A DNA stretch of 64,000 nucleotides. Source: Serratia grimesii NBRC 13537. GTDB taxonomy: Bacteria; Pseudomonadota; Gammaproteobacteria; Enterobacterales; Enterobacteriaceae. The notes under the pieces were generated by a model. It saw only the letters and a program-made list of their open reading frames with translations. It ran no database searches and was not told the DNA's origin. Shown here in pieces: positions 8,389 to 23,860 of the stretch. The DNA is taken from NCBI RefSeq assembly GCF_001590905.1, contig NZ_BCTT01000011.1:124001-188000 (forward strand), in the 5' to 3' direction. The first letter of the stretch is position 1; every line of letters starts with the position of its first letter. The position numbers and the translations under genes were made by a program.

Positions 8389-10355
8389 TGAATAACCCAA
8401 CCTTTATCCGGCTGAGATTTGCCTTCAAACTCAGTTTCGCGATTGTGTTTGCCCTGTTTGTCGGTTTCCATCTCAATTTGGAAACGCCACGCTGGTCGGC
8501 GATGACTGCCGCCATCGTGGCTGCCGGCCCGGCCTTTGCGGCGGGCGGCGAACCCTTCTCTGGTGCTATCCGCCATCGTGGTTGGTTGCGCATTATCGGT
8601 ACCTTTATCGGTTGCTTTGTCGGCTTGGTGATTATTGTCACGACGGCGCGTGCGCCGGTAGTGATGTTATTGCTGTGCTGTATCTGGGCGGGTTTCTGTA
8701 CCTGGCTGTCTTCGCTGATTAAAGTCGAAAACTCCTATGCCTGGGGATTGGCGGGCTACACCGCGCTGATCATCATCGTGACCGTCGCTAGCAGCGAATC
8801 TCACCTGTTAGAGGCACCGCAGTTTGCCATTGAGCGCTGTAGTGAGATCGTACTGGGGATCGTCAGCGCTGTGCTGGCGGATCTGCTGTTCTCACCGCGT
8901 TCAATCAAGCAGGATATCGATCGTGCGGTGGATCAACTGCTGGTGGATCAGTACCGATTGATGCAGATGTGTATTAGCAATGCCGAGAAAGAAGACATCG
9001 ACCGTGCCTGGAGCAACTTGGTGAAAAGCACCACTGCGCTGAATGGCATGCGCAGCAACTTGATGATGGAGTCATCACGTTGGCAGAAAGTGAACCGCCG
9101 CGTTCTGGCGTTGCATACGCTTTCGCTGACACTGATTACCCAGGCCTGCGAAACTTATTTAATCCTGCTGAACCACCCGGATGCGCTGAAAGAAAACGTT
9201 CGCGAGTTATTGATGGTACCGGCGGAAACGCCGCAGGAAATTCATAAACGCATGAAGTTGCTGCGGCAAGTGCTGACTACCAACCGTACCGATGAGACTT
9301 TAGTGACCATCACCAGTTGGGTGGGCGCAGCTACTCGTTACCTGCTGCTGGCCAAAGGTGTGCATACCAACAGCAGCATTAGTGTGGTGGAAGAAGGGGT
9401 GTTAAGCAGTGAGGTCGTGGTCAAACCAACCTCGGCAGAAAGACACCACGCGATGATTAACGGCCTGCGTACCTTTGTCGCAACGGCGTTTGGTAGCTTA
9501 TTGTGGTTATGGACTGGCTGGACCTCCGGCAGTGGTTTTATGGTGATCATTGCGGTGATCACTTCACTGGCGATGCGTACTCCGGCGCCGCGCATGGTGG
9601 CGATGGACTTTGTGCTGGGTATGCTGGCGGCGATCCCGGTCGGCTCACTGTTCTTTATGGTAATCCTGCCTGCAACCCAGCAAAGTATTTTACTGCTGTG
9701 TCTCAGTCTGGGCCTGCTGGCCTTCTTCATCGGTATCGAAGTGCAGAAACGGCGGTTGGGCTCACTCGGCCTGTTGGCCGGGACCATCAACATTCTGGTG
9801 CTGAGCAACCCGATGGAGTTCAACGTGACTCAGTTCCTCGACGGGGCGCTCGGTCAGTTCCTTGGCAGCTGCGTAGGCTTGATGGTGCTGTTACTGATCC
9901 GCGATAACTCACGTGAACGTACGGGGCGTACGCTGCTGAACCAGTTTGTCAGCAGTGCAGTATCGGCGTTGACCACCAAGGCGTCGCGTCGTCGGCAAAA
10001 TCATCTGCCAGCACTGTATCAGCAACTGAATCAACTGCTGATGATGTTCCCGAACGATATCGCGAAGTACCGCCTGGCGCTAAACCTGATCATCGCCCAC
10101 CAGCGTATGCAGCGAGCGGAGATACCGGCCAGCGAGGAGCTTTCAGCATTCCATAAGCAGATCCGCAATACCGCAGACCATGTTGTTTCGGCTAAAAACG
10201 ATGTGAAGCGCGCGTACTATTACGATCGACTGTTGGGTGAAATGAATGACTATCAGCAAAAACTGGTGGATTATCATGCGCCACTCAGCGTCACTGGGCC
10301 GGTAAAACGCCTGGCGGACATGTTGCATCGTTACCGCCATGCGTTGATCGACTGA
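8388..10355 (+). CDS. aaeB: AaeB, FUSC-family efflux transporter
   Basis: The 655-residue inner-membrane pump of the aromatic-acid efflux system, the same size as E. coli AaeB. It has the FUSC layout: five to six helices near residues 10-160, a long cytoplasmic segment (about 170-345), a second helical bundle (about 355-490) and a C-terminal cytoplasmic domain. The motif around [18 protein letters not shown] is typical. It acts with the AaeA adaptor as a relief valve for p-hydroxybenzoate-type acids. Translation is coupled to aaeA by the 1-base overlap. Confidence 0.94.
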
Positions 10356-10599
10356 CACGCCAAATGCCCCTCCCGGGGCTATACTTGCCAAAGATGACCC
10401 TGTTTCGGAGTTGCACTGAGTGCCAGACGCGCTGCAAAATGGCATGATTAGCATGAATGGGTGATGCAAGTTGTTGGGTGCGGTTTCCCCTGAAGTGAAA
10501 ACGTTATATGACAGTCATCTCTGCTTCATCCTTTTCATCTATAAATCCAACTAGCATGGGTGCTGATGCACCCCTGTCTGCCATAATTCAGGGACAGCA

Positions 10600-11049
10600 A
10601 TGAATAAGCGGATCCTCGTGGCGATAGTTATCGCCGTTGTGATAGCCGGTTTTAGCGCACTGCGCGGTACCGATAGGGTGATTGCCAACGTGCCGGCGGT
10701 GGCTGAAGGTCAGAGTATTGACCAACTGACGCAGCAGAAAAGGGTGGTGAGTTACCTGCAGCAGCATCAGCGGCTGCCGGACTATTACATCACCAAGAAG
10801 CAGGCGCGTGAACAGGGGTGGGATGCACGTAACGGGAATTTGTGTTCGGTGCTGCCGGGCAAGGCCATTGGCGGTGACCGTTTCTCAAACCGTGAAGGGC
10901 AACTGCCTACCGCCCGTAGCCGAGTATGGCGCGAAGCGGATATCAATTATCAATGCGGCCGGCGCGGTGCCGATCGCTTGCTGTATTCCAGCGACGGCCT
11001 GATTTTTGTCACGCGTGACCATTATAAAAACTTCATTCGGGTGGAGTGA
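10600..11049 (+). CDS. secreted barnase-type ribonuclease
   Basis: A 149-residue guanyl-preferring RNase of the N1/T1 (barnase) family with an N-terminal hydrophobic segment (residues 4-19) that looks like a signal peptide or anchor. Against Bacillus barnase the alignment is ungapped from YITK to the end with a constant offset of 39. All key residues are present: Lys66 (K27), Arg98 (R59), Glu112 (E73, general base), Arg122 (R83), Arg126 (R87) and His141 (H102, general acid). Cys82 and Cys119 are extra and could form a disulfide in the periplasm. The barstar gene follows 5 bases after the stop. The protein looks fully active. Confidence 0.92.
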   Translation: MNKRILVAIVIAVVIAGFSALRGTDRVIANVPAVAEGQSIDQLTQQKRVVSYLQQHQRLPDYYITKKQAREQGWDARNGNLCSVLPGKAIGGDRFSNREGQLPTARSRVWREADINYQCGRRGADRLLYSSDGLIFVTRDHYKNFIRVE

Positions 11050-11054
11050 GCTTG

Positions 11055-11354
11055 ATGGCAAAAGTAGAGTTCGATTTTAATCAGATTAACGATTTGCCGG
11101 CGTTCTACCGCGACTTTGCACATAAGTTTGCGCTGGATGAGGCGTTTGGCGCCAATCTGGATGCACTGTGGGACGTGGTAACCGCGGACATCGGCTTGCC
11201 GGTTGAGATTGAGTTTACCCATCTCAACGCCCGCAGCAAACGTCGTTTTGGCGCGATTATTCTTCTGTTTGAAGAGGCGGAAGAAGAGTTGGAAGGTAGC
11301 CTGCGTTTCAATATTCGTGAAAGCAGCGGTGAACCTGCACATCACCGGGGATGA
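11055..11354 (+). CDS. yhcO: barstar-family ribonuclease inhibitor
   Basis: A 99-residue cytosolic protein homologous to E. coli YhcO and to barstar. FGANLDALWDVV carries the two barstar aspartates (D35 and D39 equivalents), and LLFEEAEEELEG is the acidic C-terminal helix. The start at 11055 has GGAG 8-11 bases upstream; GTG and TTG starts slightly upstream are possible. Encoded immediately after the barnase, it should protect the cytoplasm from enzyme that fails to be exported. E. coli keeps a barstar at the corresponding place beside aaeB. Confidence 0.9.
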   Translation: MAKVEFDFNQINDLPAFYRDFAHKFALDEAFGANLDALWDVVTADIGLPVEIEFTHLNARSKRRFGAIILLFEEAEEELEGSLRFNIRESSGEPAHHRG

Positions 11355-11375
11355 ACTGGGTTCATCCCGTGGTGA
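11342..11375. terminator. bidirectional hairpin between barstar and yjgA
   Basis: TCACC.GGGATGAA (from 11342) pairs with TTCATCCCGTGGTGA (11361-11375) around a 5-base loop. It lies between convergent genes and overlaps the barstar stop. Long stem, no strong T-tract. Confidence 0.55.
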
Positions 11376-11384
11376 CGGCGGCGA

Positions 11385-11933
11385 TCATTCGGCGGTCTCG
11401 GCCAGATCACGCAGATACTGGAAGATTTGACGGTAAGCTTTCGGCGGCTTGTTAGCGGCTTTCTCTTTCTGTGCGTTACGCACCAGTGAGCGCAGCTGCT
11501 GACGATCGGCATCTGGATACAGCGCCAGAATAGGCGGGATCGCATCATCGCCTTCTTCTACCAGGCGGTCGCGCAGCACTTCCAGCTTATGGAACAGCGA
11601 AACCTGTTGGTTATGGCGGTTCTTCAGTTTGTCGAGCGCGGTTTGGATCGGCTCTACATCGCGGGCACGCAGCATTTTGCCAATCAGTTGCAGCTGACGG
11701 CGGCGGCCTTCTTTTTTGATCTTCTGCGCCAGTTCAATCGCGGTGCGTAAATCTTCGTCCAGCGGGATGCGGTCCAGGGCGTTTTTACCCAGCTCGACCA
11801 GTTCGACGCCCAGATCTTTCAGCGCTTCGGCATCACGTTTAATTTCACTTTTACTGACCCAGATAATCTCGTCATCTTCCTCGTCAATGTTCTCCGGGAC
11901 ATCGTCGAGCCAGTCTTCAGGCTGTTTGTTCAT
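11385..11933 (-). CDS. darP: DarP (YjgA), ribosome-associated assembly factor
   Basis: 182 residues, strongly similar to E. coli YjgA over its whole length. It has an acidic N terminus ([20 protein letters not shown]), a charged helical body ([30 protein letters not shown]) and a conserved C-terminal [19 protein letters not shown]. The E. coli protein associates with the late 50S precursor and promotes peptidyl-transferase-centre maturation. The gene is divergent from pmbA, as in other Enterobacterales. Confidence 0.93.
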
Positions 11934-12110
11934 GGTAGGCTCCGTTAAAAAGAGGCTAATCCTAACAGGTTGCCGGCTTTATGCGAAATTCCACGCGGTT
12001 CCTGTTAGACTCAAAAGTATAAATCACATGATTTTTGCGCGTGACTCCACGCGCAACCACGCCGCCACGGCACTTTTCTCAACGATTTTCTGATTAAGTA
12101 TGGCAGATTG

Positions 12111-13451
12111 ATGAAAGTAGTCACTCAAGTTGCAGAACAGCGCAAGGCGCTGGAACAGGCCGTTTCACAGGCTTTGGAACTGGCACGCGCCGGCTCCGAT
12201 GCGGCAGAAGTTGCCGTGACCAAATCTACCGGTATCAGCGTCAGCACCCGCTTCGGCGAGGTGGAGAACGTTGAGTTCAACAGCGATGGTGCGTTGGGCA
12301 TTACTGTTTATCACCAACAGCGTAAAGGCAGTGCGTCTTCTACCGATCTCAGCCCGGATGCGATTGCGCGTACTGTGCAGGCAGCACTGGATATCGCCCG
12401 TTATACCTCGGTGGATCCTAACGCCGGCCCGGCAGAAAAAGATCTACTGGCGTTTGACGCACCGGATCTGGATCTGTTCCACCCAGAGGAACTGGACGCA
12501 GAGCGCGGTATCGAACTGGCTGCACGAGCCGAACAGGCGTCACTGGCCGCAGACAAACGTATTACCAATACCGAAGGGGGCAGTTTTAACAGCCACTATG
12601 GTATCAAGGTGTTCGGCAACAGCCACGGCATGTTGCAAAGTTACTGTTCCAGCCGGCATTCACTGTCTAGCTGCGTCATTGCGGAACAGGATGGTGATAT
12701 GGAGCGTGATTACGCTTACACCATTGGCCGCGCGATGGGCGATCTGGAAAGCCCGGAATGGGTCGGGCAGGAATGTGCCCGTCGCACGCTGTTACGCCTG
12801 GCACCGCGTAAGCTGTCAACCATGACCGCACCGGTATTGTTTGCCTCTGAAGTCGCAACGGGGTTGTTCGGGCATTTGGTCGGTGCCATCAGTGGGAGCA
12901 GTGTTTACCGAAAATCCACTTATCTGTTGGATTCTTTGGGCAAACAAATCCTGCCGGACTGGCTGACTATCGAAGAGCACCCGCATTTGCTAAAAGGGCT
13001 GGCCTCTACGCCGTTCGACAGCGAGGGTGTCCGTACCCAACGCCGCGACATTGTCAAAGATGGCGTGTTGCAAACCTGGCTGATGACCAGCTATTCGGCG
13101 CGTAAGCTGGGTATGCACAGTACCGGCCATGCGGGCGGTATCCACAATTGGCGGATCAAAGGGCAGGGTAATGACTTTGCCGGTATGTTGAAGCAGTTGG
13201 GCACCGGTTTGGTGGTTACCGAACTGATGGGCCAGGGGGTCAGCGGCATTACCGGCGACTATTCTCGCGGTGCTGCGGGTTTCTGGGTAGAAAACGGCGA
13301 GATCCAATATCCGGTCAGCGAGATCACTATCGCGGGTAACCTGAAGGATATGTTGCGTAACATCGTCAGCGTGGGTAGCGATATCGAAACCCGCAGTAAC
13401 ATCCAGTGCGGTTCTGTGTTGTTGCCGGACATGAAAATCGCCGGTCAGTAA
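12111..13451 (+). CDS. pmbA: PmbA/TldE, metalloprotease partner subunit
   Basis: A 446-residue TldE (PmbA) protein. With TldD it forms a heterodimeric metalloprotease that processes microcin B17 precursor and degrades CcdA; in that pair TldD carries the zinc site. Conserved stretches include [60 protein letters not shown] and the C-terminal [20 protein letters not shown] at 12111 is preferred to the TTG codon just before it. tldD is not in this window. The neighbours darP and cybC match the conserved synteny. Confidence 0.94.
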
Positions 13452-13460
13452 TGTTTACCA

Positions 13461-13486
13461 CGGCTGGCCGCTCCGGTTGCCAGCCG
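13461..13486 (+). terminator. probable pmbA terminator
   Basis: CGGCTGGC (13461-13468) pairs with GCCAGCCG (13479-13486) 10 bases after the pmbA stop, followed by pyrimidine-rich TCTCACTTCCCTTT. Confidence 0.55.
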
Positions 13487-13603
13487 TCTCACTTCCCTTT
13501 CCCCCGTTTTAACCTTGCTTACAAATCTTCGGTTTCGGTTTTCACTTCACTTGCCTATGGTTAGGCTGGGTCAAATAAAACAATAACTGGAAGGTGAGCA
13601 AGC

Positions 13604-13990
13604 ATGTCGAACAAACTGAAAGCGCTTATGGCATTGACGCTGCTGGGTGCCAGTTCACTGGCTGTCGCAGCCGATCTGGCCGACGATATGGATACCATAT
13701 CGGGCAATTACAAAACGGTGCTGAGCACCGACTCCACGGACACAATGAAGCAAAGCTTGCAGAATATGCGTGCCGCTGCCGTAGATGCGAAGCAAAGTAA
13801 GCCACCAAAAATGGAAGATAAAGCGGCCAACAGCCCGGAGATAAAAGATTTCCATCACGGTTTGGATACGCTGATCGGCCAGATAGATCAATCGCTGGCG
13901 CTGGCTAATCAAGGCAAACTGGCCGAAGCCAAGCAAGTTGCGCAGGGCTTCAAGCAAACCCGCGACGTCAATCATAAGAAATTCCGCTAA
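13604..13990 (+). CDS. cybC: periplasmic cytochrome b562
   Basis: 128 residues with a clear signal peptide (LGASSLAVA/ADL, cleavage after Ala22). The mature 106-residue four-helix bundle has Met7 (Met29 of the precursor) and His102 (His124) at exactly the positions of the axial haem ligands of E. coli cytochrome b562. RAAAVDAKQSKPPKMEDK and SPEIKDFHHGLDTLIGQID are conserved. No CxxCH is present, so haem is bound non-covalently. The physiological electron partner is unknown. The stop overlaps the stop of the convergent AraC gene. Confidence 0.93.
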   Translation: MSNKLKALMALTLLGASSLAVAADLADDMDTISGNYKTVLSTDSTDTMKQSLQNMRAAAVDAKQSKPPKMEDKAANSPEIKDFHHGLDTLIGQIDQSLALANQGKLAEAKQVAQGFKQTRDVNHKKFR

Positions 13991-14772
13991 GTCTTTTCGC
14001 GCCGTTCTGATGTCAGATAGCAGGACGGCGCTTGCCCCAGCACGCGTCGAAACATGGTTGCAAACGCCGCGCTGCTTTCATAACCCAATTCCAGAGCTAC
14101 CTGCGTCACGCTGCTACCTTCGGCCAGTCGGGCCAATGCCAATACCACGCAGGCTCGTTGGCGCCATTGTGAAAATGACATGCCGGTTTGAGTGCGGAAC
14201 AGGCGGCTGAAGCTACGGATACTCATGTACAGGCGTGCGGCCCATTCCTGCGGTGAGTCGTGGGCGTCAGGTTGTTGCAGGAAACGTTGGCACAGTTCAC
14301 CCAACCGTGGGTCAGCAGGCAGCGGGATATGCAGGGGCAAGGACTGCAGATGAGCGAGCTCATGTAACAACAGACTAACCAGCGCGCCATCCCGGCCCTG
14401 TGGGTCGTATTCCAGAGGCATATCGACGGCTGCCATCAACAGTTGGCGCATGAGTGGCGTCACGCTAACCACTTGGCAAACCTGCGGTTGAGCGGGCAGT
14501 AGAGCCGTCGGCTCAATGTAGAGGCTCCGAGTAGTGACACCGACCATTCTGACCTCATGCGGCATTTGCGGTGGCAACCACACCGCCCGCTGCGGCGGCA
14601 CAATCCAATTCCCCTGGCGGGTAAATACGTGCATCACACCGGTCGCGCCATACAGGAGTTGGGCGCGGCGGTGACTGTGCATGGGCAGCAGATGGCCTGA
14701 TGGATAATCGGTGCCGATGGCGATCACTGGCCTTGGCACGTGGTCGAGGTCATCTATACGTACGTTGCGCAT
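13987..14772 (-). CDS. AraC-family regulator with cupin sensor domain
   Basis: 261 residues: an N-terminal cupin-like effector domain (about 10-120; HLLPMHSHRRAQLLYGATG) and a C-terminal double HTH (about 160-255; LYMSIRSFSRLFRTQTGMSF, VTQVALELGYESSAAFATMF). The architecture is that of NimR/YeaM-type regulators, which control adjacent exporter genes. It is transcribed away from the FAD-enzyme/formyltransferase/exporter operon across 282 bases, making it the likely regulator of that operon (inference from divergence). Its 3' end overlaps cybC by four bases. Confidence 0.88.
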   Translation of the reverse strand: MRNVRIDDLDHVPRPVIAIGTDYPSGHLLPMHSHRRAQLLYGATGVMHVFTRQGNWIVPPQRAVWLPPQMPHEVRMVGVTTRSLYIEPTALLPAQPQVCQVVSVTPLMRQLLMAAVDMPLEYDPQGRDGALVSLLLHELAHLQSLPLHIPLPADPRLGELCQRFLQQPDAHDSPQEWAARLYMSIRSFSRLFRTQTGMSFSQWRQRACVVLALARLAEGSSVTQVALELGYESSAAFATMFRRVLGQAPSCYLTSERREKT

Positions 14773-15054
14773 AAGCCCTATCGTTGAGCATGTTGGCCGA
14801 AATGCAATGATAGTTGGCCTTTCATATAAAGCAAGCCAATCGTCGTCGCTTTACTATCAAGGAAGAGAAATAACGCTGCCTTGGCAGTGAGATATTTTTA
14901 TTGTTGATTGAACCCTCTTATTTTAAACGCCGGGGCAGGACGAGTTATCTCGTCTGCACAATACAAGAAGTTAATAAGGAATAAGTTGTCTTTTTATTCC
15001 AACACCTGAAGCAATAGTTCTTCTTTTAATGCTGTGACTATAAGGTGATATTTC

Positions 15055-16509
15055 ATGTGTAAGATCGGTGTGATTGGTGGTGGGGCGGCTGGCATTTCCT
15101 TTGTTTACAATTTCATTAAGAATAAGTCTGTTAATAATTGCAATAAACATCTTTCGCTGAAGGTTTTTGACAAGCAAGGTTTTAACGGGGGCATGGCTTA
15201 CAGCAGCGATTTCGATAGTCATATTTTAAATATGACGCCGGAGAACATGTCGGCAGATATTTTTGATCGTGCGCACTTTTCAGATTGGATCACTATGCAT
15301 TTTCCTCGCTACACTAAAGACCGTTATCCACCGCGTTGGCTCTATAAAGAGTATCTCGATTTTATCCGTGATATGTCGGTCTTTATGGCGGCCGACAGCA
15401 ACGTCACACTGAATTTCATTACCGCTGAAGTTGAGGAAATCGGCCCGCATCCTGCGGGATATTTGTTGACCGCAGCTGGTGGGATTGCAGAGCAGATGGA
15501 TGCGTTGGTGCTGTGCTCGGGGCATAATGAAGCGGAAAGTCTGTATCCCATTGATGGCGTGATTTCTTATCAGGCGAATCGAGATCTTCCTGCTATTAAC
15601 CCTGTTTCAGCAATTGGCGTGATTGGCTGTAGCCTAACGGCGATAGATGCCATTATTGAACTGATTGAGCGGGTGGGGGCGAGTAATATTTCGGCTTTGT
15701 CGCGTTCCGGATTGTTTCCCAGCGTACAACCTGCGCTGATGCGTGCACCGCCGCCAGAATTTAAGCAGCGATTGACCCGCTTTGTTGCCGACCATAACTA
15801 TATCGATGCGCATCAGTTAGTTCACATGATTAATGCGGCACTGGAGCAATACTATCCTGGGCCAGAGCGGCTGACGGTATTGTCCTCTATGGGCACCGGT
15901 AGAGATTGTTATCGTGACCTGGCTGAAAGCCTCGACCGGGCACGTTTTGCCCGTGAGCATATCTGTAGCTACCTGGCCGCGATCCATCCTGCAGTGTGTG
16001 AAGCCTGGGTTAAAATGGATGAAAATAATCGACAAGTATTTATGCGCTTTTATAACTCTTCCTGGATGCGCAATCGGCACGCTATGCCATTAAAGAATGC
16101 TTATAAAATTATCACCGGATTAGAGTGCCAACGCTTACGCGCCTTTGGCGGCGTGGTAAATATTGAGAAGGATAATCAAGGGTTCAACGCTTTCTGCCAC
16201 AATGCGACGGTACATACTCAATATTTACTTAATTGTACTGCCCCTTCATACCAAATGAAGCCAAACCGGTTAAATGGCACTCTGCTTCAAGGTGGACTGG
16301 TGCAGGAAAATATATTTGGTGGTGTGAAATGTAACCCTCTCACGCTTAAAGTCCCAGATGAACAGGGAAATGAACAAAACCTGTACTCTCTTGGCGCTCC
16401 TGCCAAAGGTGATCTTTTTTATACCTCGGCAATGGAATCCATTACCCGAGATATCAGCAAAATAGTTTTCAATAACAGCATATTTAATACAAAGAAGGCG
16501 ATAGTATGA
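15055..16509 (+). CDS. FAD/NAD(P)-binding oxidoreductase (NAD_binding_9 type)
   Basis: A 484-residue cytosolic protein with an N-terminal dinucleotide fold: GVIGGGAAG with Gly8/10/13. GGMAYSSDFDSHILNM follows, and a second Rossmann-like motif, AIGVIGCSLTAIDAI, lies near residues 186-200. This is the pattern of the FAD-NAD(P)-binding family that includes YdhS and flavin-dependent N-hydroxylase-like enzymes. The substrate is unknown. AAGGTG precedes the start. The stop overlaps the next gene by four bases, so it is translationally coupled to a formyltransferase-fold enzyme. The gene is noticeably more AT-rich than the flanking backbone genes. Confidence 0.8.
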   Translation: MCKIGVIGGGAAGISFVYNFIKNKSVNNCNKHLSLKVFDKQGFNGGMAYSSDFDSHILNMTPENMSADIFDRAHFSDWITMHFPRYTKDRYPPRWLYKEYLDFIRDMSVFMAADSNVTLNFITAEVEEIGPHPAGYLLTAAGGIAEQMDALVLCSGHNEAESLYPIDGVISYQANRDLPAINPVSAIGVIGCSLTAIDAIIELIERVGASNISALSRSGLFPSVQPALMRAPPPEFKQRLTRFVADHNYIDAHQLVHMINAALEQYYPGPERLTVLSSMGTGRDCYRDLAESLDRARFAREHICSYLAAIHPAVCEAWVKMDENNRQVFMRFYNSSWMRNRHAMPLKNAYKIITGLECQRLRAFGGVVNIEKDNQGFNAFCHNATVHTQYLLNCTAPSYQMKPNRLNGTLLQGGLVQENIFGGVKCNPLTLKVPDEQGNEQNLYSLGAPAKGDLFYTSAMESITRDISKIVFNNSIFNTKKAIV

Positions 16510-17387
16510 AAAACGTAGCGCTATTTGTTGGCAACGATATTTTTTCCTGGCTGGCATGTCAGGATGTTATTAGCGCCTTAAACAAGGAATGTGCCTTTAC
16601 GGTTTATTTTCCATTGGTGAAAGCATCGCGCCGTTTCCAAGAGCCGGCTGTGCGGCAACTTGGCCTCTATGAACGCCAGGTACTGAATGACTTTGTTTTT
16701 CCCTTTGTCACCCGACATGCTGATATTTGCCAGGGCGCTTATCAGGCTCCGCAGGTTTTCCTGGCGGGCTCAGCAGTAAAGGCCCACCGTATTGCTGATA
16801 TTAATGATGCAACTTTTATCAGCAGTTTGGGCAATATGGATGCGGTCATTTCATTGCGTTGTTATCAGAAATTCTCTGCAGATTATGTGCGGGCTTTCAG
16901 CCAGCGCGGTAAATTGCTGTGGAATCTTCATCCGGGGGATTTGCCACATTACCGCGGTGTCATGACACTGTTCCGCGCTATGGTCAACGGCGAGAAAAAC
17001 TGTGCATTGACGCTGCATGAAATGGATGAGCAGTGGGATGCAGGCCCGGTGATCGCCCGCCAGTCGGCTGAACTGCGCTATGACCTTTCATTTTTGGAAA
17101 ACATGATACTGCTGGGGTGCCGCTCTGGGGCATTTTTAGCGCACCATTTGATACGGGCGGATGAGCGGGAAGCGATAACCGTTGAGCTACAGGGCGACTA
17201 CCGTTACTGGGGATTTCCGGACGCACACTCTTTGGCGCAGGCCGAGGCGCTTGGGATTGAACTGATCGACCATGATGCAATTCGCCGCCATTATCTGTCT
17301 CTGTTTGTGGGTGATGAGTTCCATGAACTGGCGGGCCAGTTCGCTGCTGGTTTCGATGATTTCATTCGGGCGCATAGCCATGATTGA
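16506..17387 (+). CDS. formyltransferase-fold enzyme (FMT/PurN superfamily)
   Basis: A 293-residue protein with a formyl-transferase catalytic core. LWNLHPGDLPHYRGVMTLFR provides Asn140 and His142, and QWDAGPVI provides Asp178. The Asn-x-His and 36-residue His-to-Asp spacing is the same as in PurN (Asn106, His108, Asp144), so 10-formyl-THF-dependent transfer to an amine or hydroxylamine is plausible. The first 110 residues are divergent from PurN and Fmt. Pairing with a flavin enzyme recalls hydroxylamine-formylating siderophore enzymes, but the acceptor is unknown. It overlaps its upstream neighbour by 4 bases and its downstream one by 8. Confidence 0.8.
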   Translation: MKNVALFVGNDIFSWLACQDVISALNKECAFTVYFPLVKASRRFQEPAVRQLGLYERQVLNDFVFPFVTRHADICQGAYQAPQVFLAGSAVKAHRIADINDATFISSLGNMDAVISLRCYQKFSADYVRAFSQRGKLLWNLHPGDLPHYRGVMTLFRAMVNGEKNCALTLHEMDEQWDAGPVIARQSAELRYDLSFLENMILLGCRSGAFLAHHLIRADEREAITVELQGDYRYWGFPDAHSLAQAEALGIELIDHDAIRRHYLSLFVGDEFHELAGQFAAGFDDFIRAHSHD

Positions 17388-18168
17388 GATGTTGGTCATT
17401 CTTGGTGCCGGTTTTATTACCGGCATTACCACCATTTTATTCGGCTTCGGTGGCGGCTTCGTGGTGGTACCTTTTGTTTATCATCTGGTTGCCTCTTCGG
17501 GTGAACAGTCAGGTCAAGCGATGCATGTCGCAGTGGCAACCTCAACGGCGGTGATGATCCTGAACGCGGGCTATGCCACTTTCACTAACTGGCGTAGTGG
17601 TAATCTGCTGCGTGAAACCATTGTTCCGCTGGTTTATTTTATCGCTATTGGCGCTGCATTGGGGGCTTTTGCCTCAAGCCTGCTGGAAGACGGCGTGGTT
17701 AGGCTACTGTTTGTAATTTATATGCTGGTGACGATTGCGGACTGTCTGTTCAGGCGGGGTTTTTTGGTCAAACCGCCTCGTGCGGCCTTGTCTAAGGTGA
17801 CGCTATTTGTCGGTGGTCCGCTCATTGGGGTGATTGCGACGATGCTCGGCGTGGGAGGGAGCGTGCTAACCGTGCCTTTATTACGCCGACATGGTTATGA
17901 GATGAAACATTGCGTCAGCGCAGCCAATCCGCTGTCGATCCCGGTCGCTATCATTGGTGCACTGATGTATGTCGCTTTGGGCTGGCAGGAAATGACTGGG
18001 CCGCAGTATCTGGGTTATGTCAATCTGACCATTCTGGGGTTGCTTGTAGCGGCAGGTATTATGGGGATTGCGTTCGCCAAAAAATGGTTGCCGAAGGTTA
18101 ATGACAGGCTGCATGCCAGAATTTACGTGCTGCTGTTGATCGTCGTACTGGTCGCCATCAGCTTATAA
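17380..18168 (+). CDS. TauE/SafE (TSUP) family membrane transporter
   Basis: A 262-residue integral membrane protein with about eight helices in two inverted repeats. GITTILFGFGGGFVVVPFVY (residues 12-31) and GVIATMLGVGGSVLTVPLLR are the paired glycine-rich signature loops of the TSUP family, members of which export sulfite, sulfoacetate, cysteate and similar organic anions. The start at 17380 lies inside the 3' end of the formyltransferase gene (8-base overlap), giving a tightly coupled three-gene operon. Export of the operon's product is a reasonable inference; the substrate is unknown. Confidence 0.85.
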   Translation: MIEMLVILGAGFITGITTILFGFGGGFVVVPFVYHLVASSGEQSGQAMHVAVATSTAVMILNAGYATFTNWRSGNLLRETIVPLVYFIAIGAALGAFASSLLEDGVVRLLFVIYMLVTIADCLFRRGFLVKPPRAALSKVTLFVGGPLIGVIATMLGVGGSVLTVPLLRRHGYEMKHCVSAANPLSIPVAIIGALMYVALGWQEMTGPQYLGYVNLTILGLLVAAGIMGIAFAKKWLPKVNDRLHARIYVLLLIVVLVAISL

Positions 18169-18176
18169 ATGCAGAA

Positions 18177-18197
18177 AGGGCGGTTGGTCACCGCCCT
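18177..18197. terminator. bidirectional terminator between exporter and rnk
   Basis: AGGGCGGT (18177-18184) pairs with ACCGCCCT (18190-18197) around a 5-base loop, flanked by A and T tracts, between convergent genes. Confidence 0.65.
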
Positions 18198-18206
18198 GAA
18201 AACCGC

Positions 18207-18617
18207 TTAGCGGTGATATTCACCCGCCGCTTCCGGCTGGTACAACAGTTCCAGCACTTCAATACGCGCTTCTTCACCGTTCGGCAACTGCCAGGTAATC
18301 TGGTTGCCAATGTGCATGCCCAGTAGCGCTGCGCCTAACGGCGCCATCACTGAAAGCTGCTCGTGGCTATCTTTCAGCGACGCCGGGTAAACCAGCGTAC
18401 GCACATGTTCTTCTGCAGTATGCAGATCGCGGAAACGCACGCGGCTGTTCATGGTCACCACGTTGGCCGGGATCTGGGACGGCGGCAGGATTTCGGCGCG
18501 ATCCAGTTCGATGTTCAGCGCGGCGGCGACGTCGGTGTTGGCAAAGGCCGGTTGTTCCAATAGCGCATCCAGGCGTTCCGCATCCAGCTCATTAATAGTA
18601 ATGGTTGGCTTGGTCAT
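18207..18617 (-). CDS. rnk: Rnk, GreA-fold regulator of nucleoside diphosphate kinase
   Basis: 136 residues, the same length as E. coli Rnk and similar throughout: [52 protein letters not shown] and [15 protein letters not shown]. It has a short N-terminal helical pair and a C-terminal GreA/GreB-like FKBP domain, and it binds RNA polymerase. It was first identified as a regulator of nucleoside diphosphate kinase levels. Its 5' leader contains the minus-strand terminator-like hairpin described separately. Confidence 0.94.
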
Positions 18618-18685
18618 TCCACTCTCCAGTCAAATCAAAAGGCGACGGGTTACGCGCCCATAAATTCGGAAAAACAGCACAAAAG

Positions 18686-18718
18686 CAACACCCCCGCGCC
18701 AGAGGAGCGGGGGTGTTG
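18686..18718 (-). terminator. strong hairpin in the rnk leader (attenuator or end of a short transcript)
   Basis: A perfect 12-bp stem (CAACACCCCCGC at 18686-18697 with its complement at 18707-18718) and 9-base loop. Read on the minus strand it is followed by CTTTTGTGCTGTTTTT, the layout of an intrinsic terminator pointing towards rnk. No convincing gene precedes it on that strand. Confidence 0.6.
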
Positions 18719-19042
18719 TTGATGTCGAATTGTCTTACCGATAGTAGGCGGTTAAGCGGGGAAAAGAAAGAGATCCCGATCACGAAGCTTTTCACCGCCG
18801 CCGGGTTAACTGGAAACAGCTTGTGGGGTTATCTTTTTGTAATTTAATTGAATTATCTAATAAATCCTTATTTTGCGAAATGGATCCCTGATGGTCACTG
18901 AATTTCCACTTCCAACTGGAAAAAAACACGCTACACAGAAAATCGTCCTGGGGTTAGGGTAAAGACATCAGAGAAGGCGGGTTATTCAAGTGATGCGCTG
19001 TGAGATTGACAGAATCATGTTGGGATCTAGGGGTACTGAAAA
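18719..19042. other. intergenic region between rnk and the PRD-protein operon
   Basis: A non-coding stretch between divergent genes. It should contain the promoters of rnk and of the catabolic operon. A short palindrome TTCCA-AC-TGGAA lies at 18910-18921. TTGACA at 19006-19011 could be a -35 box, but no good -10 sits 16-18 bases after it. AGGGGT at 19029-19034 serves as ribosome-binding site for the GTG start at 19043. I see no sigma-54 -24/-12 signature. Confidence 0.4.
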
Positions 19043-19390
19043 GTGAATGATGGATCTGCTGCGATAGAAAAGAATGAACAGCCTGATGTCAGCATGGCCG
19101 GGGCGATAACTGAGCAGGTACTGTCAGATATTACCACTATGCTGAATGAAGACGGTATTTATACCAATGCGGTACAGCAACAGATGTTGGAATCTCATAT
19201 TCGCGCCATGGTATTGCGCTCAATAACAGGTGAGCCATTACCGGAAGTTGATAAGTCACTGTTTGATGAGATCTCAGCGGAATCAATGCAAATGGCTGAA
19301 AGAGTGGTCGATCAGTTTACCACTCTTCCGATCGAAGAGGCTTATTTGCTGTCCGTGCATTTCGAAGTAGCAAAAGATAATAACCAATAG
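19043..19390 (+). CDS. stand-alone PRD-domain protein (EF_0829/AHA_3910 type)
   Basis: A 115-residue protein that is essentially a single PTS regulation domain: His52 (ESHIRAMVLR) and His106 (LLSVHFEVAK) sit at the two positions where PRDs are phosphorylated. It has no HTH, RNA-binding or EII domain. A GTG start with AGGGGT 8 bases upstream is used; no ATG is well placed. It opens the operon, followed by four uncharacterised transporter-like proteins. The set matches the conserved cluster first catalogued in Enterococcus faecalis and Aeromonas hydrophila (family names from memory). It may report PTS phosphorylation state to a partner protein. Confidence 0.8.
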   Translation: MNDGSAAIEKNEQPDVSMAGAITEQVLSDITTMLNEDGIYTNAVQQQMLESHIRAMVLRSITGEPLPEVDKSLFDEISAESMQMAERVVDQFTTLPIEEAYLLSVHFEVAKDNNQ

Positions 19391-19425
19391 CCGTTAGCGA
19401 ATTAAATTAATCAGGAGAAAATACC

Positions 19426-19791
19426 ATGGGTCAGATTACTGTAGTGATTGGCGATCGTTTGGGTAAAGGTCAGAAAGTGGGTCAGGGCATTGAAAATGCA
19501 GGTGGAAAAGCCATTGTGATCCCTGGCGTAGCGGCAGATATGAAGCTGGGCGATGTGATGAAAGCGGAAGGTGCACAGTTAGGAATCTCTTTCTGTGGCA
19601 GTGGCGGTGCCGGCGCGATTACTGCACAAACAAAATACGGTTACAAAGCCAAATACGGTATGCGCTCCATTGATGAAGGCGTGACGGCAATTAACGAAGG
19701 TTGCACGGTGTTAGGTTTTGGTTTTATGGATAAAGAAGAACTGGGTCAGAGACTGGTTGAAGCCTACGTTAAAAAACACGGCAATCCGTAA
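19426..19791 (+). CDS. glycine-rich SFCGSGGAGAITA protein (EF_0830/AHA_3911 family)
   Basis: A 121-residue cytosolic protein whose hallmark SFCGSGGAGAITA (residues 55-67, Cys57) gives the family its name. It has an alpha/beta layout: a Val/Ile-rich strand at the N terminus (ITVVIGDRLG), the glycine loop, then ISFCGSGG, GMRSIDEGVTAINEGCTVLG and a C-terminal helix. The Cys-Gly-[ST]-Gly loop and following pattern remind me of the RpiB/LacA isomerase fold and of PTS IIB cysteine loops; this is only a resemblance. GGAG lies 9 bases before the start; the stop overlaps the next start by one base (TAATG). Confidence 0.85.
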   Translation: MGQITVVIGDRLGKGQKVGQGIENAGGKAIVIPGVAADMKLGDVMKAEGAQLGISFCGSGGAGAITAQTKYGYKAKYGMRSIDEGVTAINEGCTVLGFGFMDKEELGQRLVEAYVKKHGNP

Positions 19792-20087
19792 TGAAAGAAC
19801 AATATACAACGTCGGTAAAGGTGGAGGGTAAGGGCGACAGCAAAGCGAAAGCTTTTGCTTCCGCCTTGGCCAACGTACAGGGCGCGGTATTAAAATCCAC
19901 CAGTAATATTCTGCTGCGTATTGAACCGCAGGATGTCAGCGTATTAAGAGCGGAAGAGAAAATAACAAAAGAAAAGTTTCTATTCTTCTTTCTACCGCGC
20001 GAAAGAAAGAATTATTCCGTATCTCTGGAAATAACCGTGAACGTGACAATCATCAATACAGAAAAAGTTGTCTTCGTCACGAAATAA
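19791..20087 (+). CDS. DUF4312 family protein
   Basis: A 98-residue soluble protein (KVEGKGDSKAKAFASALANV, LRIEPQDVSVLRAEE, LFFFLPRERKNYSV) with an alternating strand pattern at both ends. It matches the DUF4312 (EF_0831-type) protein always found between the SFCGSGG protein and two membrane proteins. The start is coupled to the upstream stop by TAATG. Function is unknown; co-occurrence suggests a cytoplasmic subunit or chaperone of the transporter. Confidence 0.8.
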   Translation: MKEQYTTSVKVEGKGDSKAKAFASALANVQGAVLKSTSNILLRIEPQDVSVLRAEEKITKEKFLFFFLPRERKNYSVSLEITVNVTIINTEKVVFVTK

Positions 20088-20117
20088 AAACGTTAGCATA
20101 AATCAAAGGGTATACTG

Positions 20118-20894
20118 ATGTTTTTAATCATCTTATTTAAGTCGCTTATTATCGGCGGACTGGTGGGGGTTGGCGTAGGGGCCGGCGCCGCACGCATGTT
20201 CCATGCCCCAACCACTCAGGGCATGGGCGCTTTCCGTACCTTGGGCGAGCTGAACTCCTGCGAGGGCGATCCGGCTTCCCACTTTTCATTCGGTCTGGGC
20301 TTCTTCTTCAACGCCTGGGCGTCTTCCGTGGCGGCGGGTGCCTTCACGCAGGACGTTGACCACCGCATCATCCCACACTGGGGTGCGGCAGCGTTGATGG
20401 TCAAAAACCGCAACCTGGCGCAAACGCTGCACGACCCGAAAAAAATGGCTATCGCCTGCGGCATTATCGGCATGCTGGTGGTGGCTTTCCTCAATACTAC
20501 CGCCTCCGCAGTGCCTGCTGCACTGCAAGTCACGGCGATTAAAGTGCTGGTGCCGGCAGCTAACCTGCTGGTGAATACCGTGATGCCGGTGATCTTCTGG
20601 CTGGCGGCGATCGACGCCGGGCGTCGTTCTGGCTTCTGGGGCACCATCTTTGGCGGTCTGGCGCAGTTGATCATGGGCAATGCCGTTCCGGGTCTGGTAT
20701 TGGGCATCCTGATCGGTAAAGGCGTCGAAGAAAGCGGATGGAACAAAATCACCAAGATCATGATGGCGGTGATCGTGCTGTTGTTCGTGCTGAGCGGCTT
20801 CTTCCGCGGCTTCGACATGAAAGTCCTCGAGTCCTTCAGCCTCGGCGTACCGGGCTGGCTTGACGCCATTCACAATACCCTGAGCGGTAAATAA
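20118..20894 (+). CDS. DUF4311 integral membrane protein, probable transporter subunit
   Basis: A 258-residue membrane protein with about seven hydrophobic helices. The first helix is glycine-rich (LIIGGLVGVGVGAGAA) and is followed by a conserved polar loop (FRTLGELNSCEGDPASHFSF) that could line a substrate path. NTVMPVIFWLAAIDAGRRSG and GNAVPGLVLGILIGKGVEES follow. It matches the DUF4311 (EF_0832-type) family. It is followed 11 bases later by a second membrane protein. The gene is much more GC-rich than the three small genes before it. No mechanism is known. Confidence 0.82.
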   Translation: MFLIILFKSLIIGGLVGVGVGAGAARMFHAPTTQGMGAFRTLGELNSCEGDPASHFSFGLGFFFNAWASSVAAGAFTQDVDHRIIPHWGAAALMVKNRNLAQTLHDPKKMAIACGIIGMLVVAFLNTTASAVPAALQVTAIKVLVPAANLLVNTVMPVIFWLAAIDAGRRSGFWGTIFGGLAQLIMGNAVPGLVLGILIGKGVEESGWNKITKIMMAVIVLLFVLSGFFRGFDMKVLESFSLGVPGWLDAIHNTLSGK

Positions 20895-20905
20895 GGAGCT
20901 GGAAA

Positions 20906-21556
20906 ATGGAAGAACAAACCCAAAAAGGCTTCTGGTATGCCGACTGGTCATTCCCGATTTTTGTTGGCCTGCTCTCTTCCGGCGTGTTTGCCGGGACGCA
21001 CATGTACTACCTGTACGGCATCGGCGCATTTAACGAAGTCGCCTTTGTTTCTATGCTGCGTGCCGGGATGGATACCGGTGTTTATGGTGCTGTAGCGGCA
21101 TTCGGTGCCAGCTTCCTGTTTGCGCGCATCATCGAAGGCTCGCTGGTGGGGATCCTGGACATCGGAGGTGCGATCCAGACAGGTGTTGGGTTGGGTGTTC
21201 CTGCACTGTTGCTCGGGGCGGGGATCATCTTCCCGGTGGCGAACTTTGCTGCGTCGCTGATAACCGGTTTGGTAATTGGTTTGGCGATTGGCTACCTGAT
21301 CATCCTGGCGCGTAAATTTACCATCAACCAGAGCAACTCTACCTACGGGGCTGATGTGATGATGGGGGCAGGTAACTCCTCTGGGCGTTTCCTGGGGCCA
21401 TTGATCATCCTGTCTGCAATGACTGCCTCAATTCCTATTGGTATAGGTTCACTGCTCGGCGCACTGTTGTTCTATATCTGGAACAAGCCAATCACCGGTG
21501 GGGCGATCCTCGGCGCGATGTTGTTAGGGGCCATTTTCCCTGTCGCCATCGCTTAA
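20906..21556 (+). CDS. DUF4310 integral membrane protein, probable transporter subunit
   Basis: A 216-residue membrane protein with about six helices (FPIFVGLLSSGVFAGTHMYY, GLVIGLAIGYLIILAR, GAILGAMLLGAIFPVAIA) and glycine-rich loops (MMGAGNSSGRFLGPLIILSA). It matches the DUF4310 (EF_0833-type) family, the constant partner of DUF4311. AAGGAG lies 10 bases upstream of the start. Together the two proteins would provide about 13 membrane helices for a transport channel. Assignment as transporter is inference from topology and from the linked catabolic genes. Confidence 0.82.
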   Translation: MEEQTQKGFWYADWSFPIFVGLLSSGVFAGTHMYYLYGIGAFNEVAFVSMLRAGMDTGVYGAVAAFGASFLFARIIEGSLVGILDIGGAIQTGVGLGVPALLLGAGIIFPVANFAASLITGLVIGLAIGYLIILARKFTINQSNSTYGADVMMGAGNSSGRFLGPLIILSAMTASIPIGIGSLLGALLFYIWNKPITGGAILGAMLLGAIFPVAIA

Positions 21557-21573
21557 ATGCGACTGTGATTGTT

Positions 21574-21595
21574 GGGGAGCGGCACGCCGCTCCCC
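21574..21595 (+). promoter_or_regulatory. intercistronic hairpin between transporter and catabolic genes
   Basis: GGGGAGCGG (21574-21582) pairs perfectly with CCGCTCCCC (21587-21595) over a 4-base loop, 18 bases after the DUF4310 stop. No T-run follows, so it is more likely an mRNA-stability or processing element that sets differential expression within the operon than a terminator. Confidence 0.5.
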
Positions 21596-21618
21596 TGCTT
21601 GAAAAGGAGTAATGCAGT

Positions 21619-22758
21619 ATGTATGACTTAGTAATCAGACGCGCCAGACTGGTGGATGACCAGCTGGTCGATATAGCAGTTCAGGACGGCAAGATTGCCG
21701 AGGTTGGACAGTTAGCCGACGACGTCTGCGCCCATCGGCAACTGGATCTGGCGGGCAACTGTCTCTTGAGCGCCGGCTGGATCGACTCCCACGTGCATTG
21801 TTACCCTTCTTCGCCGATTTACCATGACGAACCGGACCTGGTTGGCACGGCCTGCGGCGTCACGACAGTGATCGACGCCGGTAGTACCGGTACCGATGAC
21901 GTCGAGGCGTTTTATGCGCTGACGCGCAATGCTAAAACCAATGTCTTCGCCTTTCTAAATATTTCACGCATCGGTTTGTTGCGGCAAAACGAGTTGGCCG
22001 ATTTGGCCGATATCGATAAGCAAAAAGTCAGCCAAGCTATCGGCAAACATCCGGGTTTTATCATCGGTATAAAGGCACGCATGAGCAGTAGCGTAGTCGG
22101 CCAGAATGGCACCCGGCCATTGGTGCTTGCCAAAGAGATCCAGCAGGAAAATAACCAATTACCATTGATGGTGCATATCGGTAATAACCCACCGGATCTC
22201 GATGAGATAGCCGATCTGCTGACCCGTGGCGACATTATTACCCACTGCTACAACGGCAAGCCAAATCGCATTCTGACGCCTGCCGGTACGCTGCGTGAGT
22301 CCATTCAGCGTGCATTGAAGCGTGGCGTGTTGCTCGACGTTGGCCACGGTACCGCCAGCTTTAGCTTTGAGGTCGCCCGGCAGGCGATAGCACTGGGTAT
22401 TTTGCCGCATACCATCAGTTCCGATATTTACTGTCGCAACCGCATGGCTGGCCCAGTACACAGTCTGGCGACGGTGATGTCCAAATTCTTCAGTGTCGGT
22501 CTGTCTCTCCCGCAGGTGATTGCCTGCGTAACGGAGAATGCTGCCTCGGCGCTGCGTCTGAACAATAAAGGTCGCCTCGCACCAGGCTATGACGCTGATT
22601 TCACCCTGTTTGAACTCCACCAAGGGCCACAGGTGTTCGCTGATTCAGAAGGGCAATCAGTTGCTGGACAACAGTTGCTGGTTCCACTGGCTGCCGTCGT
22701 GGCCGGTGAAATCCTATTAACCGATGAAGGGAAAGCCGCTCATGTCTTCAATCTATGA
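21619..22758 (+). CDS. amidohydrolase/deacetylase family metalloenzyme (EF_0837/AHA_3915 type)
   Basis: A 379-residue amidohydrolase-superfamily enzyme. DSHVHCYPS gives the metal-binding His58 and His60. GIKAR places Lys152 where the carboxylated lysine sits. MVHIGNNP and ITHCYNG supply two further histidines, and HTISSDIYC the catalytic Asp. The fold resembles dihydroorotases and N-acetylglucosamine-type deacetylases. It probably removes an acyl group or opens a cyclic amide on the imported compound, exposing an amine for the next enzyme. AAGGAG lies 12 bases upstream. It overlaps the PLP-enzyme gene by 17 bases. Confidence 0.85.
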   Translation: MYDLVIRRARLVDDQLVDIAVQDGKIAEVGQLADDVCAHRQLDLAGNCLLSAGWIDSHVHCYPSSPIYHDEPDLVGTACGVTTVIDAGSTGTDDVEAFYALTRNAKTNVFAFLNISRIGLLRQNELADLADIDKQKVSQAIGKHPGFIIGIKARMSSSVVGQNGTRPLVLAKEIQQENNQLPLMVHIGNNPPDLDEIADLLTRGDIITHCYNGKPNRILTPAGTLRESIQRALKRGVLLDVGHGTASFSFEVARQAIALGILPHTISSDIYCRNRMAGPVHSLATVMSKFFSVGLSLPQVIACVTENAASALRLNNKGRLAPGYDADFTLFELHQGPQVFADSEGQSVAGQQLLVPLAAVVAGEILLTDEGKAAHVFNL

Positions 22759-23860
22759 AAAATATAATTTAAAACAGGTCATTAATACTTCCGGTCGCAT
22801 GACTATGCTCGGTGTATCTACGCCGCGCCAGGATGTCATTGACGCCGTTGACTATGGCCTGAATCACTATTTTGAAATCAAGGATCTGGTTGATAAGACT
22901 GGCGCCTATATTGCCAACCTGCTGAATGTTGAAGCTGCGGTGATCGTTTCCTGCGCTTCGGCAGGCATCGCCCAATCGGTGGCGGCATTGATTGTGAAAG
23001 ACAATGCCAACCTGTTGGTGAACTTGCACTCAGCACCTATTACCGTTCCACGTGAGATTGTGCTGCCACGTGGTCATAACGTTAACTTTGGTGCACCGGT
23101 TGACACCATGGTGGCGCTGGGCGGCGGTAAGGTTGTGGAGGCGGGCTACGCTAATGAATGTTCTGCTGAACAGCTTGAAGCCTGCATCACGCCTCAGACT
23201 GCGGCCATTCTCTACATCAAATCACACCACTGTGTGCAGAAAAGCATTCTTTCTGTTGAGCAGGCGGTCGTGGTGGCACGTAAACATAACCTGCCGCTTA
23301 TTGTTGATGCCGCCGCGGAAGAAGATCTGCTGTGTTACTACCAAATGGGAGCCGACCTGGTGGTTTACAGCGGCGCCAAAGCTATCGAAGGCCCAACCAG
23401 CGGTCTGGTGATCGGTAAAAAACAGTATGTTGAATGGGTGAAGCTGCAATCTGGCGGCATCGGCCGAGCGATGAAGGTCGGCAAAGAGGGCATTCTAGGT
23501 CTGACTCAGGCGATAGAGAGCTATTTGACGCTGGAAAAAACCACCGGTCAGCAAATGGTTGAAAGAATGACGCCGTTTATCGATAGCCTCAATACATTGA
23601 CCGGCATCAGCGCCAAAACCGTTTGGGACAGCGCCGGTCGCGATATCGCGCGGGCGGAAATCACCTTTGACGAAGCGGTGCTTGGGCGTTCGACCTACGA
23701 CATCGTACAGGCGTTGAAAACTGGCGATATCGCTATCTACTTCCGTGGCTATAAGGCTAACGAAGGCAAGATTGAAGTGGATGTGCGCAGTGTTGACCAG
23801 CAACAACTGATGACCGTCTTCACCTGTATTAAAAATCTGTTTACGGAGAAACAAGCATGA
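22742..23860 (+). CDS. PLP-dependent ammonia-lyase-like enzyme (DgaE/SelA-like)
   Basis: A 372-residue fold-type I PLP enzyme related to selenocysteine synthase and to DgaE, the D-glucosaminate-6-phosphate ammonia-lyase. SGAKAIEGPTSG contains the Schiff-base lysine (Lys213), and LPLIVDAAAEED contains Asp189, which should contact the pyridine nitrogen. The start at 22742 (GAAGGGA 8-15 bases upstream) is chosen over an in-frame GTG 18 bases earlier. In the predicted pathway it eliminates ammonia from an amino-sugar-acid phosphate to give a 2-keto-3-deoxy acid. Its stop overlaps the aldolase start (ATGA). The exact substrate is not known, so no symbol is given. Confidence 0.85.
   Translation: MSSIYEKYNLKQVINTSGRMTMLGVSTPRQDVIDAVDYGLNHYFEIKDLVDKTGAYIANLLNVEAAVIVSCASAGIAQSVAALIVKDNANLLVNLHSAPITVPREIVLPRGHNVNFGAPVDTMVALGGGKVVEAGYANECSAEQLEACITPQTAAILYIKSHHCVQKSILSVEQAVVVARKHNLPLIVDAAAEEDLLCYYQMGADLVVYSGAKAIEGPTSGLVIGKKQYVEWVKLQSGGIGRAMKVGKEGILGLTQAIESYLTLEKTTGQQMVERMTPFIDSLNTLTGISAKTVWDSAGRDIARAEITFDEAVLGRSTYDIVQALKTGDIAIYFRGYKANEGKIEVDVRSVDQQQLMTVFTCIKNLFTEKQA

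What the first reader, a model, noticed from the sequence alone, without database searches (positions are those of the whole stretch)
15055..18168. Coupled flavoenzyme-formyltransferase-exporter operon under a divergent AraC regulator
Three genes overlap (4 and 8 bases): an FAD/NAD(P)-binding enzyme, a formyltransferase-fold protein with the full Asn-His-Asp set at PurN spacing, and a TSUP exporter. Hydroxylation plus formylation is the chemistry of formyl-hydroxamates, and export would complete production of a small secreted metabolite. I know of no described pathway with this combination. The first two genes are more AT-rich than neighbours.
Basis: partly seen in the sequence, partly recalled or inferred. 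Interest (0 to 1): 0.62.

Follow-up and report, generated by a model that had tools for sequence, protein, structure and literature searches.

The report
Serratia flavoenzyme–formyltransferase cassette with RNA leader
Many Serratia bacteria carry two enzyme genes, one for a flavin-using oxidation and one for adding a formyl group, set between a regulator and an exporter, and the messenger RNA in front of them has an extremely conserved leader predicted to fold over the translation start, so the set probably makes and exports an unknown small molecule under tight control.

Summary
The anatomy is as described: flavoprotein (15055-16509), formyltransferase (16506-17387) and TSUP exporter (17380-18168) overlap by 4 and 8 bases beside a divergent AraC gene. 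Among 30 Serratia genomes the two enzymes occur together in 18; AraC and exporter occur in those 18 plus four where they are adjacent with nothing between. So the enzymes are a strict pair set between a separable regulator-exporter pair. The formyltransferase orthologue is in none of 118 relatives outside the genus. The flavoprotein belongs to Pfam NAD_binding_9, the family of the solved L-aspartate N-hydroxylase 8CP2, so N-hydroxylation is plausible but untested; the formyltransferase keeps Asn-His-Asp. It occurs once in each of the 18 carriers, in none of 130 other genomes, and matches no Rfam family at E<=1. It is a candidate new cis-regulatory RNA; covariation supports only its upstream hairpin. 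Product, ligand and mechanism are unproven.

The parts
13987..14772 (-). AraC-family regulator (261 aa), divergent
   Evidence: orthologue (E<=1e-130) in 22 of 30 Serratia genomes
14793..14838 (+). putative AraC operator: TTGGCC direct repeat 21 bp apart; GCAATGATAGTTGGCC and GCAAGCCA are in 22 of 22 genomes with or without the enzyme cassette, both TTGGCC copies in 20 of 22
   Evidence: operator role inferred
14852..14857 (+). putative -10 (TACTAT) just downstream of the operator; the transcript would start near 14864
   Evidence: read; not found by the sigma-70 consensus scan; inferred
14927..15072 (+). conserved, predicted structured 5' leader, from outer helix to codon 6 of the flavoprotein gene
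   Evidence: alignments A5-A7; model R1 hits once in each of 18 carriers and in none of the other 130 of 148 genomes; no Rfam hit at E<=1
14940..14953 (+). leader hairpin P0; three of its five pairs have changes on both sides
14961..15060 (+). predicted three-way junction: P1 (14961-14965/15056-15060 and 14967-14971/15050-15054, taking in U and G of the start codon), P2 hairpin (14978-14984/14994-15000), P3a (15003-15007/15043-15047, pairs with the Shine-Dalgarno AGGTG)
   Evidence: invariant blocks of 22, 18 and 18 nt
15055..16509 (+). flavoprotein, Pfam NAD_binding_9 (484 aa)
   Evidence: same Pfam family as L-aspartate N-hydroxylase 8CP2
16506..17387 (+). formyltransferase-fold protein (293 aa) with N140/H142/D178
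   Evidence: widened profile nearest the ArnA formyltransferase domain in the PDB
17380..18168 (+). TSUP (TauE/SafE) exporter (262 aa)
   Evidence: in 22 of 30 Serratia genomes

Best explanation
A Serratia two-enzyme cassette lies between a regulator (AraC) and an anion exporter (TSUP) that also exist without it. AraC is proposed to bind the TTGGCC direct repeat and drive the transcript (inferred). In the mRNA leader a three-way junction hides the Shine-Dalgarno and part of the start codon, so translation of the flavoprotein, and through the overlapping reading frames probably of the other two genes, waits for a signal that opens the fold (structure predicted, switching inferred). The flavoprotein, of the Pfam family that includes L-aspartate N-hydroxylase, oxidises an amine, probably to an N-hydroxylamine. 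The formyltransferase adds a formyl group from 10-formyl-THF, and the TSUP protein exports the small, probably acidic, N-formyl product. Shown: gene layout, co-occurrence, catalytic triad, family placement, purifying selection, extreme leader conservation. Inferred: substrate, hydroxamate chemistry, export, ligand.
For: Flavoprotein and formyltransferase in the same 18 of 30 Serratia genomes; the formyltransferase orthologue in none of the 118 relatives outside the genus. AraC and exporter in those 18 plus 4 with a 116-126 bp gap and no enzymes. Pfam families. A ten-row NAD_binding_9 profile, three rows of it Serratia, has 8CP2 as best PDB hit, E 6.3e-20, and the N-terminal part of 8CP2 is itself NAD_binding_9, E 7.7e-45. 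N/H/D invariant in 14 of 14. dN/dS 0.048-0.166. Leader invariant runs of 22, 18 and 18 nt against at most 8 in the flavoprotein gene from codon 9 on and in the formyltransferase gene. P0 covariation. Shine-Dalgarno unpaired probability 0.01-0.06 in 18 of 18. Third codon positions invariant in codons 1-6 and variable afterwards.
Against: No substrate, product or expression data. The Serratia-only flavoprotein profile finds no PDB chain at E<=1, and its direct comparison with 8CP2 is weak (probability 6.8%). AlphaFold models were poor (mean pLDDT 40 and 56). Helices P1 and P3 hardly vary, so they have no covariation support; the inner helix P3b is doubtful (pair probability 0-0.86). With other end points the best folds of 2 of 18 sequences lack helix P1b and 1 of 18 lacks P3a. 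MFE z-scores are only -0.3 to -2.5 in six sequences. The start region ranks 4th most closed of 30 window genes, itself included, and its AUG 15th. Exporter and AraC exist without the enzymes. Formyltransferase relatives elsewhere have no flavoprotein neighbour.
Confidence: 0.4

Rival explanations
1. Formylated sugar or other amine without N-hydroxylation: the formyltransferase acts on an amino sugar or amine as ArnA and WlaRD-type enzymes do, and the flavoprotein does an unrelated oxidation such as dehydrogenation.
For: The best PDB hits of the formyltransferase profile are ArnA (E 1.2e-20) and sugar N-formyltransferases. NAD_binding_9 proteins occur in very mixed gene contexts, so the family is not bound to one reaction.
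Against: No sugar-nucleotide family among ten neighbouring proteins scanned. The exporter is TSUP, a family known (recalled) for small anions. The closest solved structure of the flavoprotein family is an N-hydroxylase.
Confidence: 0.25
2. Detoxification or turnover: the cassette modifies a toxic amine or hydroxylamine and the TSUP removes it, with AraC sensing the compound.
For: The AraC-exporter pair without the cassette looks like a regulator/efflux pair. Patchy presence (18 of 30) suits a conditional function.
Against: The leader is more conserved than any stretch of the enzyme genes, which suits control by one specific signal better than general detoxification.
Confidence: 0.2
3. On the leader alone: it is an RNA thermometer or the target of a trans-acting small RNA or of an RNA-binding protein, not a metabolite sensor; or the invariant blocks act as DNA sites.
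For: A hidden Shine-Dalgarno is shared by these RNA classes; there is one copy per genome. The helices that matter most hardly vary, so the invariance does not by itself prove a fold.
Against: Thermometers (recalled) do not need long invariant unpaired strands; here J1/2 and the bulge GAAGCA are invariant while the loops of P2 and P3 vary. The blocks reach into codons 1-6 with invariant third positions, at the predicted pairing partners.
Confidence: 0.4

Closest known systems
L-aspartate N-hydroxylase of Streptomyces sp. V2 (8CP2) and CreE/FzmM (PMC10404684 and PMC7347517, passages read)
   Same: NAD_binding_9 N-terminal domain; in the family profile the flavin-facing Asn62 falls in the column of N59 of this protein, which is invariant (my own residue count)
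   Different: 484 against 601 aa (8CP2 chain); R13 of 8CP2 falls at A12 here; no lyase family in the neighbours scanned; the pairwise profile alignment is weak and does not pair N59 with Asn62
Siderophore pathways with an N-hydroxylase followed by a formyltransferase (rhodochelin, coelichelin; PMC7347517 passages)
   Same: flavin N-hydroxylase plus 10-formyl-THF formyltransferase logic
   Different: no NRPS or siderophore family among the neighbours scanned; the flavoprotein has no K_oxygenase hit at E<=1
ArnA formyltransferase domain and sugar N-formyltransferases
   Same: fold and triad; closest solved relatives of the widened profile
   Different: no sugar-nucleotide context; well below the ArnA and Fmt model cut-offs (44 against 777 bits; 41 against 201.5 bits)
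NimR/NimT-type AraC-exporter pairs (recalled)
   Same: divergent AraC regulator and exporter
   Different: TSUP instead of an MFS exporter; the enzyme cassette sits between
Riboswitch-type leaders that hide the Shine-Dalgarno (general class, recalled)
   Same: junction with invariant strands, variable loops, hidden ribosome-binding site (predicted)
   Different: no match to any of 4227 Rfam families at E<=1; found in one genus only among 148 genomes

Membership tests
L-aspartate N-hydroxylase (CreE/FzmM) | NAD_binding_9 (PF13454) FAD domain | tested here: met
L-aspartate N-hydroxylase (CreE/FzmM) | flavin-facing Asn62 | tested here: inconclusive
   aligned with invariant N59 through the family profile, not in the pairwise profile alignment
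L-aspartate N-hydroxylase (CreE/FzmM) | Arg cluster of the aspartate entry chamber | tested here: inconclusive
   R13 of 8CP2 falls at A12 here; the helical substrate domain could not be aligned
L-aspartate N-hydroxylase (CreE/FzmM) | neighbouring nitrosuccinate lyase | tested here: not met
   no lyase family among ten neighbours within 8388-23857 scanned or among the three operon genes and AraC; three short ORFs at 19043-20894 and one at 20906-21556 were not scanned
Ornithine/lysine N-hydroxylase of siderophores (K_oxygenase) | K_oxygenase Pfam domain | tested here: not met
   no hit at E<=1
10-formyl-THF-dependent formyltransferase | Formyl_trans_N domain with Asn-His-Asp | tested here: met
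   N140, H142, D178 in 14 of 14
10-formyl-THF-dependent formyltransferase | formyl transfer from 10-formyl-THF | not testable with these tools
   needs an enzyme assay
TSUP (TauE/SafE) exporter | TauE Pfam domain over nearly the whole protein | tested here: met
   residues 8-258 of 262, E 6.9e-37
Known RNA families (Rfam 15) | match to a family model | tested here: not met
   no match at E<=1
Metabolite riboswitch (as a class) | ligand binding that changes the fold | not testable with these tools
   needs in-line probing with purified RNA

The most novel reading that the evidence does not exclude
The leader at 14927-15072 is a new riboswitch class, restricted to Serratia, that senses the product or a precursor of an undescribed N-hydroxylation/N-formylation pathway encoded by the two enzymes, and gates translation of the whole enzyme-exporter operon.
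Probability: 0.2. Interest if true: 0.82.

Novelty: new variant of a known kind. Interest (0 to 1): 0.6.

Why it matters
It points to an unassigned small-molecule pathway carried by 18 of 30 Serratia species genomes, and to a leader element conserved beyond its own coding genes. The leader gives a handle: a ligand found by probing would name the pathway's product or precursor, and the empty-site genomes give natural comparison strains.

Tried and rejected
AlphaFold models of both enzymes from shallow Serratia-only alignments were poor (mean pLDDT 40 for the flavoprotein, 56 for the formyltransferase) and were not used; no fold search was run. Looking for the pair elsewhere: nine of the 47 plasmid records matched by the flavoprotein were read; none has a formyltransferase annotated beside it, but the plasmid gene table is incomplete. 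Formyltransferase relatives in 25 fetched regions have no NAD_binding_9 neighbour; one weak hit of the widened profile lies at the edge of L155, about 7 kb away, and for L161 one flank lies beyond the contig end. A uORF in the leader was considered by eye and rejected: no start codon is shared, and the invariant runs ignore codon wobble. A terminator-like hairpin at 14874-14889 was not pursued; the region gave 8 such sites against 5.1 expected. The PADLOC scan gave one weak irrelevant hit. A search for the term PF13454 found no paper; the one paper with the term NAD_binding_9 (listing only) was not opened.

Direction of cassette gain or loss was left open: the least number of changes on the AraC+exporter tree is 3. 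The four empty genomes share a related stretch before the exporter that carriers lack, so the gap does not look like a simple deletion scar.

Two early scripts read minus-strand loci in the wrong direction; their rows and trees were discarded and redone, where the flavoprotein tree left out G015 because of its stop codon. In one search the test for helix P1a was mis-indexed and its count (0 of 18) is not used.

Full report
Observation. The three reading frames, the 4- and 8-base overlaps and the divergent AraC gene are as described, and so are the families: NAD_binding_9, Formyl_trans_N, TauE and AraC. The flavoprotein gene is the most AT-rich (46.0% GC; window 52.4%); the formyltransferase gene (50.9%) is close to the exporter (51.7%) and cybC (51.4%).

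Among 30 genomes of the genus, own genome included, the flavoprotein is in 18, the formyltransferase orthologue in the same 18, the exporter in 22 and the AraC orthologue in the same 22. In 18 of 18 the two enzymes are adjacent (coordinates). In four genomes (G018, G020, G003, G005) AraC and exporter are 116-126 bp apart with no enzymes. On the AraC+exporter tree these fall in three places and at least three changes are needed. Eight of the 30 lack the AraC orthologue, the exporter and both enzymes at the thresholds used. The enzymes are therefore a strict pair, and regulator and exporter a separable one.

Outside Serratia. The flavoprotein has only distant relatives on plasmids (47 records; the 20 listed are at most 25.9% identical), in mixed contexts in the nine read. 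In one search the formyltransferase orthologue was in 18 of 148 relatives, all Serratia; best hits in the 118 genomes outside the genus are at E 7e-9 or weaker and look by open-frame length like ArnA, Fmt or PurN. Relatives of its own subfamily were found in 3 of 369 class genomes and 2 of 398 phylum genomes besides the own genome, and with a widened profile in 20 non-Serratia genomes of 384 at E<1e-50, two of which helped to build that profile. Twenty-five regions around such hits, two of them weaker hits, were fetched. Neighbours differ between them, apart from some pairs of close relatives, and no flavoprotein of this family lies beside them.

Enzymes. A profile of ten NAD_binding_9 proteins, three of them Serratia, hits 8CP2, the L-aspartate N-hydroxylase, best of all PDB chains (E 6.3e-20). 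The N-terminal part of 8CP2 is NAD_binding_9 (E 7.7e-45). [quoted passage not shown] in the profile it falls in the column of N59 here. Against this, the Serratia-only profile finds nothing in the PDB, and the pairwise comparison is weak and places that residue differently. So the family is shown and N-hydroxylation is an inference. The formyltransferase keeps N140/H142/D178 in 14 of 14 and is nearest to ArnA and sugar formyltransferases. Both genes are under purifying selection. Ten neighbouring proteins scanned hold no lyase, NRPS or sugar-nucleotide family.

The leader. In the 18 carriers the space between AraC and the flavoprotein is 274-284 bp. The part next to AraC, with a TTGGCC direct repeat, is also present in the four empty genomes (core in 22 of 22, both TTGGCC copies in 20 of 22) and is read as the AraC operator. 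Further down, three blocks of 22, 18 and 18 nt are invariant in 18 of 18, while the longest invariant run is 8 nt in the flavoprotein gene from codon 9 on and in the formyltransferase gene, and 14% of third codon positions are invariant in the flavoprotein gene from codon 9 on. Third positions are invariant in codons 1-6 and vary afterwards. The sequences are predicted to form an outer helix, a hairpin P0 and a three-way junction. Mean pair probability is at least 0.81 for the outer helix, P1 and P3a in 18 of 18, and 0.98 or more for P2 in 17 of 18, the last being out of register in the alignment; P0 varies (0.41-1.0) and the inner helix P3b is doubtful (0-0.86). With other end points the best folds of 16 of 18 keep helix P1b, 17 of 18 keep P3a and 18 of 18 keep P2. 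P0 has three pairs with changes on both sides. P1 and P3 hardly vary, so covariation neither supports nor refutes them. The Shine-Dalgarno is 0.01-0.06 unpaired in 18 of 18; 5-13 of 300 shuffled leaders hide it as well, in the six of 18 sequences tested. Energy z-scores are modest, -0.3 to -2.5 in six of 18. The start region ranks 4th most closed of 30 window genes, itself included, and its AUG 15th. The covariance model finds the element once in each of the 18 carriers and in none of the other 130 of 148 genomes, with strict filters. Rfam, plasmids and phages give no match. In the own genome the 17-base core occurs once exactly.

Reading. Invariant junction strands with variable loops, a hidden ribosome-binding site and a single copy before a short pathway suggest a cis-acting translational switch. 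Whether the signal is a metabolite, temperature, a protein or a small RNA is open. With overlapping frames, control at the first gene probably reaches all three.

Literature. I found no paper on this set (search listings over open PMC papers only). PMC10404684 and PMC7347517 were read in passages. The PurN/Fmt residue numbers, NimR/NimT, TSUP substrates and the properties of thermometers and riboswitches are recalled.

Noticed in passing
   Followed up: no
window 14874-14889: A terminator-like hairpin followed at a short distance by a T-run lies at the start of the presumed transcript.
   Followed up: no
window 10600-11354: A secreted-ribonuclease-type gene (Pfam Ribonuclease) and a barstar-type inhibitor gene overlap by four bases, a barnase/barstar-like pair.
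   Followed up: no
window 19426-23860: A neighbouring gene set with a glycine-rich SFCGS protein, membrane-protein-like ORFs, an amidohydrolase with an EF_0837-like domain and a SelA-type protein; function not looked into.
   Followed up: no
genus-wide: The 22 Serratia genomes with the AraC orthologue carry 2-8 further AraC paralogues each at E<=1e-30, at 31-46% identity.
   Followed up: no
L123 7671-8480 and similar loci: A solitary formyltransferase-like family of mostly 256-292 aa with NLHSG and YRGVM-type motifs, in other families of the same order and class, with no evident partner or assigned function.
   Followed up: partly
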